Shown: one piece after another, positions 4,842-27,481 of the stretch
Numbering within the stretch: position 1 is the stretch's first letter
Layout of the letters: each line of letters begins with the position of its first letter
Source of the DNA: Maridesulfovibrio hydrothermalis AM13 = DSM 14728
Lineage (GTDB): Bacteria; Desulfobacterota; Desulfovibrionia; Desulfovibrionales; Desulfovibrionaceae
Direction of reading: 5' to 3'
Assembly: GCF_000331025.1 (NCBI RefSeq)
Contig: NC_020055.1
Coordinates: forward strand, 2,637,370 to 2,701,369
Length of the DNA: 64,000 nucleotides
Program-made: the position numbers and the translations under genes
The notes under the pieces: generated by a model
What the model saw: the letters and a program-made list of their open reading frames with translations, nothing else
The model's database searches: none
Told to the model about the DNA's origin: nothing

Positions 4842-4860
4842 ATTATCACTACGGCTGTTA

Positions 4861-4900
4861 AAGCGGAGAAACTTTTTAATAAGTTTCTCCGCTTTTTTTA
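4861..4900 (+). terminator. Terminator of clpSA
   Basis: Perfect 14-bp stem AAGCGGAGAAACTT / AAGTTTCTCCGCTT with a six-base loop, followed by a T-run. It lies 20 bases after the clpA stop. Confidence 0.9.
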
Positions 4901-5122: not shown

Positions 5123-6697
5123 ATGCGAGGGGGCTTTGTGTATAAAATTTTTGAAGATTTGATTGAGATGCCTGTCACTGTGTGGAGTTGGTTTATAAAA
5201 TTGGATACAGGTCTTAAGTTTGCTTTTATAACTTTAGTATTAACCGCAATACCCGTTGCCGTAATGGCGTGTAATTTTTTGCTTAGTCGCAAAAAAAATA
5301 AGCAAGATCTTACTTCTGATACTTTAGCAGAAAAGCTTTATGATAAACTAGACCAAGCTCAACAAAGTCTTCAATCTAAAGATGAAGAGATTCGTGGTTT
5401 AAAAGATGCTATTGAAGGCTTGCGCGATTTGGAAGAACAGAGTGAAACAGCCAAGCTTGCTGCTGATGCAGAAAAACAACTTCAAGAAGGAAATACTGAC
5501 TTAGCAAAAGCACTTTTTCGTCAAGTAGCACAAAATAGTGTAAAAAAAGGTAAAGAGGTCGCAGCTACAGAATTTGAAAAAGCAGCTCAAGCATATCGCC
5601 GCTTAGGAGCTTTGGCATATTTAGATAATACTCATGAAGCCCTCGAAGCATATCAAGAAGCAGTAAAGCTTGATACCCAAAATGCGGATGGCTGGAATAG
5701 TCTTGGTCATATATTATTAAGAATCGGGGAACTTGATAAGGCTGGGGAAGCTTATAAGAGGGTACTAAGTATTGGCGAGTCGCAGACTGATACCGAGATT
5801 ATTGCAGTAGCTTACGGCAACCTCGGCGTAATTCGTCAAACTCAGGGCGACCTTGCGGGGGCGGAAGATTTTTATCGCAAATCTTTGAAGATTAATGAAG
5901 AGTTGGGCCGCAAAGAAGGGATGGCTAATCAGTACGGCAACCTCGGCAACATTCGTCAAACTCAGGGCGACCTTGCGGGGGCGGAAGATTTTTATCGCAA
6001 ATCTTTGAAGATTAATGAAGAGTTGGGCCGCAAAGAAGGGATGGCTAATCAGTACGGCAACCTCGGCATAATTCGTGCTACTCAGGGCGACCTTGCGGGG
6101 GCGGAAGATTTTTATCGCAAATCTTTGACGATTAATGAAGAGTTGGGCCGCAAAGAAGGGATGGCCGCAGATTACGGCAACCTCGGCGTAATTCGTAAAA
6201 CTCAGGGCGACCTTGCGGGGGCGGAAGATTTTTATCGCAAATCTTTGAAGATTAATGAAGAGTTGGGCCGCAAAGAAGGGATGGCCGCAGCTTACGGCAA
6301 CCTCGGCAACATTCGTGCTACTCAGGGCGACCTTGCGGGGGCGGAAGATTTTTATCGCAAATCCTTGAAGATTAATGAAGAGTTGGGCTGCAAAGAAGGC
6401 ATGGCGAATCTGTACGGCAACCTCGGCATAATTCGTCAAACTCAGGGCGACCTTGCGGGGGCGGAAGATTTTTATCGCAAATCTTTGAAGATTAATGAAG
6501 AGTTGGGCCGCAAAGAAGGGATGGCCGCAGATTACGGCAACCTCGGTGTAATTCGTAAAACTCAGGGCGACCTTGCGGAGGCGGAAGATTTGTGGTTAAA
6601 ATCTCTTAATCTTTACAAACAGATCGGTGCTGCTCCTATGATTGATAAAGTACAGGGATGGCTTGATGAACTTACTGATGCCAAGGGCAATAAGTAA
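5123..6697 (+). CDS. Membrane-anchored TPR protein with near-identical tandem repeats
   Basis: 524 residues. One transmembrane helix at about 30-54, then a charged coiled coil (about 60-115, EKLYDKLDQAQQSLQSKDEE), then degenerate TPRs (about 115-230). After that come six almost identical 40-residue TPR units plus a seventh that diverges after its first half (from residue 231), each like YGNLGxIRxTQGDLAGAEDF. The topology suggests a short N-terminus outside and a large cytoplasmic scaffold, but orientation is inferred. An alternative GTG start at 5138 has a better-placed GAGG and would drop five residues. The gene is alone between two hairpin elements and has an AT-rich leader. TPRs bind protein partners; the partner is unknown and no enzymatic domain is visible. 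Confidence 0.85.
   Translation: MRGGFVYKIFEDLIEMPVTVWSWFIKLDTGLKFAFITLVLTAIPVAVMACNFLLSRKKNKQDLTSDTLAEKLYDKLDQAQQSLQSKDEEIRGLKDAIEGLRDLEEQSETAKLAADAEKQLQEGNTDLAKALFRQVAQNSVKKGKEVAATEFEKAAQAYRRLGALAYLDNTHEALEAYQEAVKLDTQNADGWNSLGHILLRIGELDKAGEAYKRVLSIGESQTDTEIIAVAYGNLGVIRQTQGDLAGAEDFYRKSLKINEELGRKEGMANQYGNLGNIRQTQGDLAGAEDFYRKSLKINEELGRKEGMANQYGNLGIIRATQGDLAGAEDFYRKSLTINEELGRKEGMAADYGNLGVIRKTQGDLAGAEDFYRKSLKINEELGRKEGMAAAYGNLGNIRATQGDLAGAEDFYRKSLKINEELGCKEGMANLYGNLGIIRQTQGDLAGAEDFYRKSLKINEELGRKEGMAADYGNLGVIRKTQGDLAEAEDLWLKSLNLYKQIGAAPMIDKVQGWLDELTDAKGNK
5813..6652 (+). repeat. Tandem 120-bp repeats inside the TPR gene
   Basis: Units begin at 5813, 5933, 6053, 6173, 6293, 6413 and 6533; the seventh diverges after about 70 bases. 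Units 1 and 2 differ at 3 of 120 bases, all in one codon. Differences concentrate in codons 6, 9, 39 and 40; silent changes are few. Codon 6 runs Val, Asn, Ile, Val, Asn, Ile, Val, a 360-bp higher-order period. The length is a multiple of three, so gain or loss of units keeps the frame. Confidence 0.97.
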
Positions 6698-6896: not shown

Positions 6897-7634
6897 CTAC
6901 AAGCCGAGTGAGGCAAGTAGGTCGTCTACATTGTTTTGATCTGCTTTTTCGGTAGGCCCTTTAAGGTCGCTCATTTTGCTTTGCGTTTCTTTGTCAAGCT
7001 GCTCCAGCGATTTTTCCGGTGCTTCTTCACGTGCTTTGATTTTCAGCCCTGTGGACATGTAGAGATCGAGCACTATTTTTTCGACACTTTTGATGGTGTC
7101 GATGATAATCTTGATACGCTGTCCGGTCAGATCCTGAAAGGACAGGGTGGTCATGATGGTCATAAGGTCTTCGCTGAGGGTGCTGTTTATTTCACTAAGT
7201 TTGACACGCTGCTCTTTTTTTACACCGCCGGACTCAAAAGATTTGATGATATCGATCAATGCTAATTGCGTTTCCTGCAACTTCTCAACGATATCCATGA
7301 TTTCCTGAGTCGCTTTTTCAGTGGTGCGCATGATGGCATCAAGCTGATCGGATGCTTCAGTGAAAAGATCGTCCGGATTGCAGTCAATACAAACTTCAAC
7401 GGGGCTTTCAGTGGGGCCTTTTTTGGCTTTTGCAACTTCGTGATAGATGTCGCGCAATCCATTTTGCAGGTCGATGTTGATACGGCGGTAGAATTCACCT
7501 TCAAGCAAAGTTTTGGACATGCTCTTGGAAATTTCTTTTTGCACAGCTTCGGCGATGCTCTCTTTAAGGCTCGCGGCAAGGTCTTCGGAAACTTTTTCCA
7601 TCATCTCCCGCACTATCTGATCATCATTAGTCAC
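6897..7634 (-). CDS. cheZ: CheZ-family CheY-P phosphatase
   Basis: 245 residues, largely helical. The catalytic signature SFQDLTGQRI at 165-174 carries the Asp168 and Gln172 pair equivalent to the Asp/Gln that dephosphorylate CheY-P in characterised CheZ. The last residues, VDDLLASLGL, closely match the C-terminal CheY-binding peptide of enterobacterial CheZ. An N-terminal helix pair and the central four-helix bundle region (about 90-205) are joined to the tail by a polar linker. Last gene of the operon that starts at ileS. No cheA or cheY is in the window, so the partner response regulator is encoded elsewhere. Confidence 0.9.
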   Translation of the reverse strand: MTNDDQIVREMMEKVSEDLAASLKESIAEAVQKEISKSMSKTLLEGEFYRRINIDLQNGLRDIYHEVAKAKKGPTESPVEVCIDCNPDDLFTEASDQLDAIMRTTEKATQEIMDIVEKLQETQLALIDIIKSFESGGVKKEQRVKLSEINSTLSEDLMTIMTTLSFQDLTGQRIKIIIDTIKSVEKIVLDLYMSTGLKIKAREEAPEKSLEQLDKETQSKMSDLKGPTEKADQNNVDDLLASLGL

Positions 7635-7685
7635 TGCGCACTCCTTTGCGTTGAGTCTCTACTTCCTTGAAATTAAAAATCGGGA

Positions 7686-8201
7686 CTAGCCCAGCTTTTC
7701 ATTCCTGATCAATTCACGCTGCTGGCTGAAAACAAATTGAATGATTGATTCGAGGTCATGCTCTCTGATCTTTTCAAATTTCATAACCCACGTATTTTGC
7801 TTTTTGCCTGCTTTTACAGACCCCTTGGCCCCGGCGAGGCGCAGGGGAATCTGCTCAATTTCAATAACGGCCTCCAGTATACCGGGACCGTTAATTTCTG
7901 TTTCGGTGCAGAATATCATACCATTGCCTGAAATCTCTATTATTTCAAGTGCAATTGGAAAATCTATTGTTAAGTCTTTCTTGCTCTGCATCCCCATCAG
8001 TTGATCCAGTTTCCGGTCCAGTTCGATCACATATGCTTTGAGCCATTCCGGGACTTTAGAATCATCAAGATCTTCGGCCGGATGCTTTTGCATACCGCTG
8101 AAACCACGAAAAATCGGCTGATTTTCGATGGATTTGCAAAAGCGTCCAAAGCCCTTGATACGTGTTTTCACACTTGCGTAGTGAATTGAATCCCGATCCA
8201 T
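7686..8201 (-). CDS. PilZ-like protein, probable c-di-GMP effector
   Basis: 171 residues from the ATG at 8201, chosen because a GAAGGA ribosome site precedes it and it falls just after the ferredoxin stop; a longer frame up to 8393 would overlap that gene. The first 60 residues are basic and include an RxxxF-type stretch. The C-terminal half has a beta-rich segment with EISGNGMIF, resembling the PilZ (D/N)xSxxG turn, and ends with an amphipathic helix FVFSQQRELIRNE seen in PilZ domains. c-di-GMP binding is inferred and the Arg motif is not clear-cut. It precedes cheZ, suggesting motility control. Confidence 0.6.
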   Translation of the reverse strand: MDRDSIHYASVKTRIKGFGRFCKSIENQPIFRGFSGMQKHPAEDLDDSKVPEWLKAYVIELDRKLDQLMGMQSKKDLTIDFPIALEIIEISGNGMIFCTETEINGPGILEAVIEIEQIPLRLAGAKGSVKAGKKQNTWVMKFEKIREHDLESIIQFVFSQQRELIRNEKLG

Positions 8202-8220
8202 AATGTAATCCTTCGGAAGT

Positions 8221-8649
8221 TTAATCCTGCGGGTCAATTTCCATTGCCCGCACTGGACAGACCTTGGTGCAAAGTCCGCAAGCGGTACATTTATCAAGAT
8301 CAAAAAGAACCAGACGACTTTTCTGATCAAGTGAAAGAGCACCGGTGGGACACATGGCCAGACACATGCCGCAATGCATGCAGGAATCATCATCTCTGGC
8401 TATTTTCTGGGCAACGGGAATCAGTTTGATTCCATTCTCTTTAAGATAGTTCAGCCCTTTATGATAATCTTCCTCCAGTCCGGTAATTTCGAGAGTCATG
8501 CTCCCTTCGTGTCTGGGGTTGATATCAGCTTTAAGGATATTGAAACTGAGATTATAGAGTTTGCCTAAATTACATACAACAGGACGTCCTGAAACTGTCG
8601 GGGGAAATGCAAGATGGATAATTTTATTAAAATTTTTATTGTCGCTCAT
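8221..8649 (-). CDS. NIL-domain ferredoxin, 2x[4Fe-4S]
   Basis: 142 residues. Residues 1-80 form an ACT-like NIL domain (IIHLAFPPTVSGRPVVCNLG, then EGSMTLEITG). Residues 88-140 carry two clusters' ligands: CMHCGMCLAMCP and CTACGLCTKVCP, the classic CxxCxxCxxxCP pair. NIL-ferredoxins are cytoplasmic electron carriers, often linked to sulfur amino acid metabolism in anaerobes; the substrate here is unknown. It lies inside the ileS-to-cheZ operon, 18 bases after the TPR lipoprotein gene. Confidence 0.92.
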   Translation of the reverse strand: MSDNKNFNKIIHLAFPPTVSGRPVVCNLGKLYNLSFNILKADINPRHEGSMTLEITGLEEDYHKGLNYLKENGIKLIPVAQKIARDDDSCMHCGMCLAMCPTGALSLDQKSRLVLFDLDKCTACGLCTKVCPVRAMEIDPQD

Positions 8650-8667
8650 TTTATCTATCCTGTTAAA

Positions 8668-9594
8668 TTATTTTTTTAAATTTTTGATTATGGTTTTAGC
8701 GCGTTTTGCTTCAGCAGAATCAGGAGCCTTTTTTATGAGGTCTTCAAGAATATATTTTCCTGATTTTGTTTTGCCCAGTTTTATGAGGCAAAGACCTTGC
8801 TTGAGCAGCGCGGATCTATATTTATTGCTCTTGGAATGTTTGGCTATAACAACCTGATACTTGAGGGCTGCATTAGCGTAATCCTTGAGCTGATAATAAC
8901 ATTCACCTTCCCAGAAAATAGAATTAGGAACAAGCTTATGTTTGGGAAATGTTTTGGTAAATTCAGACCAGTCTCTGATAGCATCTTTGTATTTACGAGT
9001 CTTGAAGGATTCAAGAGCCTTGTCATAAAGAGCCTGTGCCGGATCTGCAGGTTCGGGCTTTTTAACTTCAGGAGTAACAATTGCTGCTATTCCGCCTGCT
9101 GCAACGGTGGAGCTTGTGGAACCGATGGTTGTTTTATTTGTTTCGCTTGCGCCAAGTGTGATCATATTTAAATCAATAGCAAGCTGGCTTTCAATAGCCA
9201 TTCGCATCGAATCCACTTTCTGGGAAAGATCAGATAATGAAATGGTGCTGTTGCTGTTACCGGCATCAAGCCTGTTAACTGATTCAGACATACCGTCGAC
9301 AGTACCCTGAAGTTTTGCAACCTGCATTTTCAGGGCCTTTATTTCGGCGTACAAGTTAGCCTGCCGCGTCTGTAAAGGAGTGCTGGATTTCTCAATTTCC
9401 TGACGCAGAGTTGCCGTTTCAGCTTCAGACTGCTTATCTATGCTGTCTATTTTTCTGTTAAGCTGGCTTCTGGTCTGGCGCAGTTCCATGCGCAGGCTGT
9501 TCATATCAGACGTCGTTACACAGCCGCCAAGCCCAGTTGTTAAAGGCAAGGCCACTAAAACAGCTACGATGAATTTTTTTAAGTTATTCTGCAT
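8668..9594 (-). CDS. CpoB/YbgF-like TPR lipoprotein
   Basis: 308 residues from the ATG at 9594, preferred over an upstream start because GGGGG precedes it and the protein then begins with a lipoprotein signal, MQNNLKKFIVAVLVALPLTTG before lipobox LGGC (Cys25, Val at +2). A coiled coil (about 30-130) is followed by a Gly/Ala-rich linker. The C-terminal TPR region (about 185-305) includes ALYDKALESFKTRKYKDAI and ALLKQGLCLIKLGKTKSG. This is the architecture of YbgF/CpoB, the periplasmic TolA-PBP1B coordinator. No tol-pal genes are nearby, so the specific role is inferred. Overlaps the upstream gene by 11 bases. Confidence 0.8.
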   Translation of the reverse strand: MQNNLKKFIVAVLVALPLTTGLGGCVTTSDMNSLRMELRQTRSQLNRKIDSIDKQSEAETATLRQEIEKSSTPLQTRQANLYAEIKALKMQVAKLQGTVDGMSESVNRLDAGNSNSTISLSDLSQKVDSMRMAIESQLAIDLNMITLGASETNKTTIGSTSSTVAAGGIAAIVTPEVKKPEPADPAQALYDKALESFKTRKYKDAIRDWSEFTKTFPKHKLVPNSIFWEGECYYQLKDYANAALKYQVVIAKHSKSNKYRSALLKQGLCLIKLGKTKSGKYILEDLIKKAPDSAEAKRAKTIIKNLKK

Positions 9595-25867: not shown

Positions 25868-26134
25868 AATTATATCCTCCGCTGGATTGCTTCATTTTTT
25901 TGCCGGATTTAAAAAATTGCGATATGCATATTTTTCTGGCCGCCGGCCTTATAAGTGGACAATATATTTAATGGACTTTGATGGCAACCGTCATATCCTG
26001 TAACAGGGTTGTGGTTGACATTAAAAATATAATGGCGTTATCCGCTCTAGAACAAATTATACACGAGCCTGACAAGAGAAATTTTGTCAGCAACCGATAA
26101 ATAAGAATTTTAATTTTAATCGAGAGAATAGCAA

Positions 26135-27481
26135 ATGAACATATGCATTGTTGGAACCGGATATGTAGGACTGGTCAGCGCAGCCTGTTTCGCTGAAATG
26201 GGTAACCATGTCTGGTGCGTGGATGTTAATCCTGATGTTGTCGAAACTCTTAAGCAGGGCAAAATTCATATTTTTGAACCCGGCCTTGAAGATATGGTCA
26301 AACGTAACTTTGAGGATGAAAGACTTTTTTTCACGACTGACCTCAAAGAAGGACTTGATAAGGCTAAATTTGTTTTTATCACTGTCGGTACTCCCTGCAA
26401 TGCGGACGGTAGTTGTGATCTGCGCTATGTTGAAGCTGTTGCCCGTGAAATCGGTCAGTTTATGACAGAGCCGAAAATCGTTGTCGATAAATCCACCGTC
26501 CCCGTCGGTACAGCAGATAAAGTCCGCACAATTATCAAGCAGGAATTGGATAAACGCGGGCTGGATATTGAATTTGATGTTGCCTCCAATCCGGAATTTC
26601 TCAAAGAAGGTGATGCTGTCAGTGACTTTATGAAGCCGGACAGAGTTGTAGTAGGTACTGAAAAAGAATCTACCTACAAAGAATTTGAAACTCTGTATGC
26701 CCCTTATGCCCGCAGTCGTGACAAGCTCATTTTTATGGGGACCAGAAGTGCGGAAATGACAAAGTATGCAGCGAACTGCATGCTTGCTACCAAAATTTCT
26801 TTTATCAACGAAATGGCCGGTATTTGCGAAAAGGTCGGTGCAAATGTTCGTGAAGTACGGCTCGGAATAGGTTCTGACCATAGAATCGGGTATTATTTTA
26901 TCTATCCTGGAGTAGGGTACGGCGGATCTTGTTTTCCCAAGGACGTGAAAGCCTTGATCAACACAGCAAGAGAAGTAGGGGCCAAACCTGAACTGATAGA
27001 AGCTGTTGATTCTGTGAATAATCGCCAGAAAAAAATGCTCAGTCGCAAGATCCTCGACTACTTTGAAGCTCAGGGCGGAGTAAGAGGAAAAACCCTTGCA
27101 ATGTGGGGACTTGCATTCAAGGCCAATACCGATGACATGAGAGAATCTTCAGCTCTTTCAATTATATCTGAGTTAACGGCTGCCGGTATGAAGATCAGAG
27201 CTTTTGACCCTGTTGCTCACGTAAAAGCAGAAGAGATTTTGCGTGATAATGATCTGGTGGAGATTGTACATAGTCAGTATGAGGTGCTTGAAGGAGCTAA
27301 CGCGCTGGCAGTTGTCACTGACTGGAATCAGTTCAGAAACCCTGACTTCGAAAAGGTTAAGGCAAGCATGCTTGCTCCGATTATTTTCGACGGCAGAAAT
27401 CTTTACGATCCGGCGTATCTGGGCAGCAACGGTTATGCTTATTTCAGCGTTGGCCGCAGGCCCGTCGGCGAAGCAAAATAG
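26135..27481 (+). CDS. ugd: UDP-glucose 6-dehydrogenase
   Basis: 448 residues. The N-terminal NAD site is GTGYVGLVSAACFAEMG; the catalytic Cys lies in GYGGSCFPKD at residue 266. It oxidises UDP-glucose to UDP-glucuronate for surface polysaccharides. It has the three-domain UDPG/MGDP dehydrogenase layout, and GDP-mannose dehydrogenase is an unlikely alternative. Monocistronic, with a 267-base upstream gap and the terminator at 27497. Confidence 0.94.
   Translation: MNICIVGTGYVGLVSAACFAEMGNHVWCVDVNPDVVETLKQGKIHIFEPGLEDMVKRNFEDERLFFTTDLKEGLDKAKFVFITVGTPCNADGSCDLRYVEAVAREIGQFMTEPKIVVDKSTVPVGTADKVRTIIKQELDKRGLDIEFDVASNPEFLKEGDAVSDFMKPDRVVVGTEKESTYKEFETLYAPYARSRDKLIFMGTRSAEMTKYAANCMLATKISFINEMAGICEKVGANVREVRLGIGSDHRIGYYFIYPGVGYGGSCFPKDVKALINTAREVGAKPELIEAVDSVNNRQKKMLSRKILDYFEAQGGVRGKTLAMWGLAFKANTDDMRESSALSIISELTAAGMKIRAFDPVAHVKAEEILRDNDLVEIVHSQYEVLEGANALAVVTDWNQFRNPDFEKVKASMLAPIIFDGRNLYDPAYLGSNGYAYFSVGRRPVGEAK

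What the first reader, a model, noticed from the sequence alone, without database searches (positions are those of the whole stretch)
5813..6652. TPR array that varies almost only at predicted ligand-contact codons
Six 120-bp units are almost identical in DNA, yet codons 6, 9, 39 and 40 differ, sometimes by all three bases: units 1 and 2 differ only in one codon (GTA versus AAC). Mapped to the 34-residue TPR consensus (LG as positions 7-8), codons 6, 9 and 39-40 are TPR positions 9, 12, 2 and 3. Positions 2, 9 and 12 are among those known to be hypervariable and ligand-facing in TPRs. Silent changes are few. This fits recent expansion with strong selection, or targeted diversification, of a binding surface on a membrane-anchored scaffold.
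Basis: partly seen in the sequence, partly recalled or inferred. Interest (0 to 1): 0.8.

Follow-up and report, generated by a model that had tools for sequence, protein, structure and literature searches.

The report
Bacterial repeat receptor diversified at contact residues
A probably membrane-anchored bacterial protein carries near-identical helical repeats that differ almost only at residues expected to grip a peptide, much as in fungal self/non-self receptors, so it is probably a fast-changing recognition protein of unknown target.

Summary
Observation confirmed. Gene 5123-6697 (+, 524 aa) holds six near-identical 120-bp TPR units plus a divergent seventh; 8 of 10 amino-acid events fall in codons 6, 9, 39 and 40, and none of 4 silent events does. 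These codons are the four most variable in ten other genus arrays and among the top five in twelve high-identity arrays of other bacteria. The scaffold is homogenised: within-array difference is 7% of that to other arrays of the genus, against 93% at the four codons. Codons 39, 6 and 9 are TPR positions 2, 9 and 12, on the concave face; codon 40 (position 3) is not. Codon 6 aligns with the Asn of the Leu-Gly-Asn triplet that grips peptide backbone in LGN. Best explanation: concerted evolution of the scaffold plus diversifying selection on a peptide groove, in a membrane-anchored recognition protein. The family is patchy, lies at varying loci, once in a prophage, and elsewhere carries NB-ARC, DUF4062 or hydrolase domains. 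Closest known: fungal NLR repeats with high internal conservation. No retroelement source found. Ligand, output and strain variation are untested; toy models cannot separate conversion from expansion; no structure was obtained.

The parts
5123..6697 (+). Gene for a 524-aa protein with a TPR array; a terminator-like hairpin (4860-4895) lies behind the upstream gene, which I read as clpA
   Evidence: ORF list; Pfam TPR models; hairpin (5 terminator-like sites found, 2.7 expected)
5228..5284 (+). Hydrophobic segment (residues 36-54), probable membrane anchor, followed by Arg/Lys, which by the positive-inside rule suggests a cytoplasmic array
   Evidence: Kyte-Doolittle mean 2.26 over 19 residues; K/R 2 before, 4 after
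5285..5569 (+). Linker, coiled-coil-like by eye (no coil predictor was run)
   Evidence: translation; inference
5570..5812 (+). N-terminal cap with degenerate TPRs; many relatives share it
   Evidence: Pfam TPR_16 at residues 163-218; alignment A1 consensus
5813..5932 (+). Unit 1: codon 6 GTA (V), codon 9 CAA (Q), codons 39-40 AAT CAG (NQ)
5933..6052 (+). Unit 2: AAC (N), CAA (Q), AAT CAG (NQ); differs from unit 1 only at codon 6
6053..6172 (+). Unit 3: ATA (I), GCT (A), GCA GAT (AD); K26T
6173..6292 (+). Unit 4: GTA (V), AAA (K), GCA GCT (AA)
6293..6412 (+). Unit 5: AAC (N), GCT (A), AAT CTG (NL); R33C and silent differences at codons 24, 36 and 38
6413..6532 (+). Unit 6: ATA (I), CAA (Q), GCA GAT (AD)
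6533..6652 (+). Unit 7: first half like unit 4 (GTA, AAA), second half a C-cap like that of the other genus arrays
6897..7634 (-). CheZ-like gene, convergent neighbour; the array gene lies beside it in four other species too
   Evidence: Pfam CheZ 8.9e-16

Best explanation
A membrane-anchored, cytoplasmic recognition protein whose TPR superhelix binds an extended peptide in its concave groove. Recombination between units (unequal crossing-over or gene conversion) keeps the scaffold of the units nearly identical, while diversifying selection keeps the groove residues (TPR positions 2, 9 and 12, with neighbouring position 3) different from unit to unit; reshuffling units makes new binding surfaces. 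Shown here: concentration of change on four codons, the same positions in other arrays, a uniform scaffold with between-species diversity at the four codons, the silent-site control, the family's distribution. Inferred: groove binding (homology to LGN, helical wheel), cytoplasmic location, exchange between units, and a role in telling self from non-self (phage or competitor). Unknown: ligand, and how binding is signalled, since this protein has no recognised effector domain.
For: Four codons hold 82% of amino-acid diversity against 10% if even. The ratio of amino-acid change there to silent change elsewhere is 11.2 (bootstrap 2.5% bound 5.0); it exceeds 1 in 14 of 17 arrays of at least 80% unit identity (window included), 9 with the bound above 1; the scaffold ratio exceeds 1 in 0 of 17. 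24 of 27 units at the shared CheZ locus have their nearest unit in the same array, 4.6 expected; scaffold within/between 0.07, hot codons 0.93. Positions 2, 5, 9, 12, 13, 33 and 34 are the published hypervariable concave set (PMC1261162, passages) and are more variable in 43 other arrays here (p 0.004). Ungapped alignment with LGN over 200 residues; the Asn of its LGN triplets hydrogen-bonds the bound peptide's main chain (PMC3438535, passage); that residue is codon 6, and 34 of 50 arrays mix N units with V/I/L/M units. Fast change: N-terminal half 38-59% identical in the strong matches where ClpA is 79-89%. Patchy: 7 of 149 family genomes, all in this genus, yet 39 loci in other bacteria. NB-ARC, DUF4062 or PGAP1-like domains in 4 of 10 relatives, most of them picked for odd N-termini.
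Against: Codon 40 (position 3) is off the contact face by helical wheel (116 degrees), and over all 14 helix-A positions variability does not follow the contact face significantly (rho -0.47, p 0.09). Over all 44 arrays the ratio at the four codons exceeds 1 in only 27, so relaxed constraint may explain part of it. The window protein has no effector domain; in PADLOC it matches two generic TPR models and Cas13a at 4.7e-4, which I take as chance; its neighbours are clpA (by eye) and a CheZ-like gene. No relative was found in IMG/VR or the phage collection. Toy models do not tell conversion plus selection (10-59 of 200 runs match) from strong selection without conversion (23-69 of 200), and neither yields three-base differences at three or more of the four codons in a uniform scaffold more than rarely. 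No structure model was obtained.
Confidence: 0.57

Rival explanations
1. Relaxed constraint: the four positions are simply the most tolerant of the TPR fold, the scaffold is conserved by purifying selection, and no diversifying selection acts.
For: The same positions are variable in TPRs generally (except position 3) and in the other arrays here; over all 44 arrays the ratio at the four codons is above 1 in only 27.
Against: In the window silent sites of the scaffold are almost invariant (pS 0.056) while the four codons have pN 0.63. In the toy models conversion without selection leaves almost no diversity at the four codons (mean 0.08 against 0.75 observed), and neutral divergence to 0.75 brings about 22 silent changes in the scaffold body against 2 seen.
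Confidence: 0.14
2. Recent expansion from one unit followed by very strong positive selection and point mutation, without exchange between units.
For: With selection 10, 30 or 100 times neutral the toy model matches in 23, 40 and 69 of 200 runs, no worse than conversion plus selection. Lineage-specific expansion would also make units nearest to their own array.
Against: It gave three-base differences at three or more codons in a uniform scaffold in 0 of 400 and 1 of 400 runs and 0 of 800 with a restricted residue set; conversion models also do so only rarely (7 of 320, 1 of 400). All four N/I by Q/A combinations arise in 0-9% of its runs against 1-18% with conversion and selection. At each of the four sites each residue is written with one codon only.
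Confidence: 0.16
3. A static multi-valent scaffold for envelope or chemotaxis proteins, each unit adapted to one fixed partner.
For: Probable membrane anchor; beside a CheZ-like gene in five species.
Against: In other species the gene sits beside hydrogenase genes, inside a prophage or elsewhere, and two near-complete genomes of the genus, G003 and G005, show no match. The CheZ-like gene is in 17 of 17 genomes, with the array gene seen beside it in five. Unit number ranges from about 5 to 9 in the genus and contact residues differ between arrays.
Confidence: 0.1
4. Targeted diversification by a retroelement or another codon-directed mechanism.
For: In the six units all four codons have three-base alternatives while codons 1-5, 7 and 8 are invariant even silently; all four combinations of N/I with Q/A occur at codons 6 and 9, six bases apart. 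None of the other 21 arrays listed has such four combinations; one (L077) also has three-base alternatives at all four codons, but at four scaffold codons too.
Against: The array has no second DNA match in its genome. The only reverse-transcriptase match is in one 875-aa frame, which I read, by recall, as a CRISPR RT-Cas1 type.
Confidence: 0.03

Closest known systems
Fungal NLR repeat domains with high internal conservation (Podospora TPR, ANK, WD40; PMC4986451 one section and passages read, PMC12222747 passages)
   Same: Near-identical repeats with change concentrated on a few codons of the contact face; evidence of concerted evolution
   Different: Those are C-terminal to NACHT/NB-ARC and an effector and vary in repeat number between strains; the window protein has a probable membrane anchor, no recognised effector or NTPase, and no population data
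Highly repetitive prokaryotic WD40 proteins (PMC5587647, passages)
   Same: Conserved repeat scaffold with diverse interaction-hotspot residues
   Different: Beta-propeller, not TPR
LGN/Pins (GPSM2) TPR domain
   Same: Ungapped 40-residue register; Leu-Gly-Asn triplet; peptide-binding groove
   Different: Repeats of LGN are diverged; here they are near-identical and the Asn alternates with V or I
TPR sensors of antiviral STAND proteins and DGR-diversified sensors (PMC10907252, PMC7159879, passages)
   Same: Variable sensor joined to different N-terminal domains; one relative here has NB-ARC
   Different: Window protein lacks the STAND core; no retroelement found
TALE DNA-binding repeats (mostly recalled; mentioned in PMC11417379 passages)
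   Same: Near-identical units differing in a few specificity codons
   Different: TALE repeats bind DNA with two variable residues; no DNA-binding evidence here

Membership tests
TPR superfamily | Curated TPR models above cut-off | tested here: met
   TPR_12 5.4e-52, TPR_1 2.1e-48, both over cut-off
Groove-binding 40-residue TPRs of the LGN type | 40-residue register and LGN triplet | tested here: met
   Ungapped match to 4wng residues 161-360, E 3.8e-24; but the Asn is present in units 2 and 5 only
Groove-binding 40-residue TPRs of the LGN type | Peptide bound in the concave groove | not testable with these tools
   no ligand known; structure job did not finish
High-internal-conservation receptor repeats | At least 85% identity between repeats over at least 100 residues (PMC4986451) | tested here: met
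   mean 92% DNA identity over six units, 240 residues
High-internal-conservation receptor repeats | Selected codons on the contact face | tested here: met
   positions 2, 9, 12 in the concave set; position 3 not; by homology only
High-internal-conservation receptor repeats | Repeat-number polymorphism within the species | not tested
   one genome per species is held; unit number differs between some species
NLR / STAND receptor | NACHT or NB-ARC domain | tested here: not met
   Pfam scan of the window protein shows none at E 0.001; one relative, L079, has NB-ARC
Diversity-generating retroelement target | Template repeat and a DGR reverse transcriptase | tested here: not met
   no second DNA match; one RT match, in an 875-aa frame elsewhere in the genome
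Known anti-phage system | Specific PADLOC model | tested here: not met
   two generic TPR models, plus Cas13a at 4.7e-4, which I take as chance
TPR-like repeats of Marold 2015 | as defined in that paper | not tested
   paper not held

The most novel reading that the evidence does not exclude
A modular peptide-reading array, TALE-like in logic: each near-identical unit reads one step of an extended peptide through a small alphabet (mostly N or V/I/L at position 9; Q, K, R or A at 12; N, A, I or S at 2; Q, D, N or R at 3), and new specificities arise by exchanging single contact codons between units. The codon-sized exchange, with invariant silent sites a few bases away and all four N/I by Q/A combinations, is not explained by the simple models tried and would need very short tracts or an unknown process.
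Probability: 0.12. Interest if true: 0.85.

Novelty: new variant of a known kind. Interest (0 to 1): 0.55.

Why it matters
It extends a mode of receptor evolution documented in fungal NLRs (homogenised repeats with a few selected contact codons) to probably membrane-anchored bacterial proteins without an NTPase core, with relatives in distant bacteria. If the recognition role holds, bacteria have a family of recombining peptide receptors whose targets could be found with standard binding screens, and whose units might serve as designable peptide-binding modules. Seven paper searches bearing on prior description showed none for bacterial TPR proteins in the listings and passages I saw; that library only, and large-scale repeat surveys (PMC6344855, passages) do count prokaryotic TPR arrays.

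Tried and rejected
Diversity-generating retroelement: rejected. Phage cargo in general: in IMG/VR 3 stretches matched a peptide pattern but none encodes a relative, and no phage record matches. Plasmids: 169 records, all under 60% identity; of the 15 listed, 13 are annotated as TPR proteins and 2 only as CHAT-domain proteins. RNA features: no Rfam match at gathering score and no tRNA in the window. NCBIfam: the window protein reaches no curated cut-off. First simulation was replaced because its selection rule could not speed adaptive change. Arrays dropped: those with fewer than three regular 40-residue units; the last unit of each array was left out of variability counts; 6 of 39 non-genus arrays with fewer than five units were left out; L052 was left out (whose printed label says 11 arrays, but 10 were used). 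Promoter scan uninformative: 2 found, 3.1 expected. After the report check I lowered the best explanation from 0.60 to 0.57 and relaxed constraint from 0.15 to 0.14, and raised expansion with selection from 0.12 to 0.16, because the model match rates do not favour conversion.

Full report
What is there. The gene at 5123-6697 encodes 524 residues: a hydrophobic segment (residues 36-54), a linker that looks like coiled coil, a cap of degenerate TPRs and seven 40-residue TPR units at 5813-6652. Arg/Lys are more frequent after than before the hydrophobic segment in 9 of 11 arrays of the genus (one equal, one reversed), and 10 of 11 pass a mean hydropathy of 1.6, so the array is probably cytoplasmic. 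It stands alone between clpA (named by eye) and a convergent CheZ-like gene.

Is the pattern real. Yes. Eight of ten amino-acid events lie in codons 6, 9, 39 and 40, and none of four silent events does. All four have alleles differing at all three bases, and no other codon of the six units has even a two-base difference. Two of the four silent events are at codon 38, next to codons 39-40.

Is it general. I took ten arrays from nine other genomes of the genus (17 searched, window's included) and 33 of 39 non-genus arrays (those with at least five units) from the loci. In 10 of 10 and 33 of 33 the four codons are more variable on average than the rest; permutation p is under 0.05 in 9 and 30. 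They are the four most variable codons in the genus set, and among the top five (with codon 28) in 12 non-genus arrays of at least 80% identity. In older arrays codons 10, 26, 28 and 33 vary as well, so the near-exclusiveness seen in the window belongs to the most homogeneous array of the set.

Selection or relaxed constraint. Silent sites outside the four codons are the control. In the window pN at the four codons is 0.628 and pS elsewhere 0.056, ratio 11.2 with bootstrap lower bound 5.0. The ratio exceeds 1 in 14 of 17 arrays of at least 80% identity (window included), 9 with the bound above 1, but in only 27 of all 44 arrays; the scaffold ratio exceeds 1 in 0 of 17 and 1 of 44. Relaxed constraint may therefore do for many older arrays but hardly for this one.

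Concerted evolution. In five genomes with the gene at the CheZ locus, 24 of 27 units have their nearest unit in their own array, 4.6 expected; in all ten arrays tested, 52 of 59, 5.2 expected. In the window, amino-acid difference within the array relative to that to nine other arrays is 0.07 at 36 scaffold positions and 0.93 at the four codons. The contact codons thus hold about as much diversity as separate species do, inside a scaffold that is nearly uniform. Lineage-specific expansion would also group units by array.

Toy models. Conversion alone removes diversity; neutral divergence brings about 22 silent scaffold-body changes where 2 are seen. Conversion with selection matches the main counts in 10-59 of 200 runs and strong selection without conversion in 23-69 of 200, so these models do not choose between the two. 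Neither gives, in a uniform scaffold, three-base alternatives at three or more codons together with all four combinations of two alleles at codons 6 and 9, which the window has: 0 of 800 selection-only runs and 0 of 320 conversion-plus-selection runs, 0 of 800 and 0 of 400. None of the other 21 arrays listed has the four combinations. This remains unexplained; short-tract exchange of old alleles is my guess. The codon-6 order V N I V N I V suggests one three-unit duplication; given the composition, 2 of 210 orders are so regular (my count).

Where the residues lie. Codons 39, 6 and 9 are TPR positions 2, 9 and 12, within the published hypervariable concave set 2, 5, 9, 12, 13, 33, 34 (PMC1261162, abstract and passages). 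By helical wheel they lie 16, 4 and 64 degrees from the known contact face; position 3 (codon 40) lies 116 degrees away; over the 14 helix-A positions variability against angle gives rho -0.47, p 0.09, not significant, while the published seven positions are more variable than the other 27 (p 0.004). LGN is the nearest natural solved structure, ungapped over 200 residues; a designed TPR scores higher. In LGN the Asn of Leu-Gly-Asn triplets of TPR4-5 makes bidentate hydrogen bonds with the main chain of the bound Insc peptide (PMC3438535, passage). That residue is codon 6: N in 22 of 76 genus units and 80 of 261 non-genus units, mostly I, L or V otherwise; 8 of 11 and 26 of 39 arrays mix the two. 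The structure job did not finish.

Distribution and company. The N-terminal half matches 14 of 17 genus genomes, 12 strongly (E below 1e-25, the window's own included); the 11 others are 38-59% identical, where ClpA is 79-89%. The cap module is in 7 of 149 family genomes, all of this genus, and in none of 43 other genera, but 39 relatives occur in other bacteria, many of them distant. The gene lies beside CheZ in five species, beside hydrogenase genes in G014, G015 and G016 (maturation protease confirmed by Pfam in G014 and G015, large subunit by eye), between portal-like and terminase genes in G004, near a tail-fibre gene in G011, and elsewhere in others. In G009 the frame stops soon after the cap, just before what looks by eye like the start of an insertion-sequence transposase. 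Of ten relatives, most of them picked for odd N-termini, two have DUF4062, one a PGAP1-like hydrolase and one NB-ARC; the DUF4062 parts match the candidate defence model PDC-S60 and the hydrolase weakly matches LmuA. This modularity is what suggests a conflict receptor; for the window protein itself that is inference.

Compared with the known. Fungal NLR TPRs with high internal conservation show the same combination, with selected sites on the concave side and repeat-number polymorphism (PMC4986451, section 17 read; PMC12222747, passages). Highly repetitive WD40 proteins, in a study centred on prokaryotic ones, also keep diverse hotspots (PMC5587647, passages). The window protein differs by its probable membrane anchor and lack of NTPase or effector. 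I rate it a new variant of a known kind.

Limits. One genome per species; no strain data. Repeat number may be affected by assembly. Homologous arrays are not independent trials. The scan finds only arrays sharing certain peptide patterns (such as KEGMANQY) with the window, which span codons 34-40 and 1 and so may favour some residues at codons 39-40; that would lower, not raise, their apparent variability.

Noticed in passing
L114 (window's genome, G000:C2 about 25,972-26,589): An 875-aa frame with a reverse-transcriptase domain; its C-terminal part looks to me, by recall, like Cas1, as in CRISPR RT-Cas1 fusions. About 1.1 Mb from the window gene if the contig is circular, 2.6 Mb if not.
   Followed up: partly
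L047 (G004) 7418-8932: A relative of the array gene lies between portal-like and terminase genes of a prophage, next to a Gp49-like (toxin-family) gene at 9197-9568.
   Followed up: yes
L044, L057, L070: Two array genes lie side by side, as in tandem immune-gene families. (L084 and L087 also show two frames, but these may be one gene broken by masked sequence or a partial copy.)
   Followed up: no
L051 (G012) 7059-9071: The linker module before the array is itself present in three nearly identical copies.
   Followed up: no
L043, L045, L052: In three species the array gene sits beside [NiFe] hydrogenase genes; why the family recurs at two housekeeping loci is unexplained.
   Followed up: partly
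window 5813-6652: Codon 6 runs V N I V N I V through the seven units, a period of three units that codons 9 and 40 do not keep.
   Followed up: partly
L048 (G009) 1-1005: The array gene stops after about one TPR past the cap, next to what looks like the start of an insertion-sequence transposase at the contig end: apparently cut short by an insertion.
   Followed up: partly
plasmid records: Several distant plasmid hits (about 28-31% identity) are annotated as CHAT-domain proteins, with or without TPR in the name; CHAT is, by recall, a caspase-like peptidase domain.
   Followed up: no
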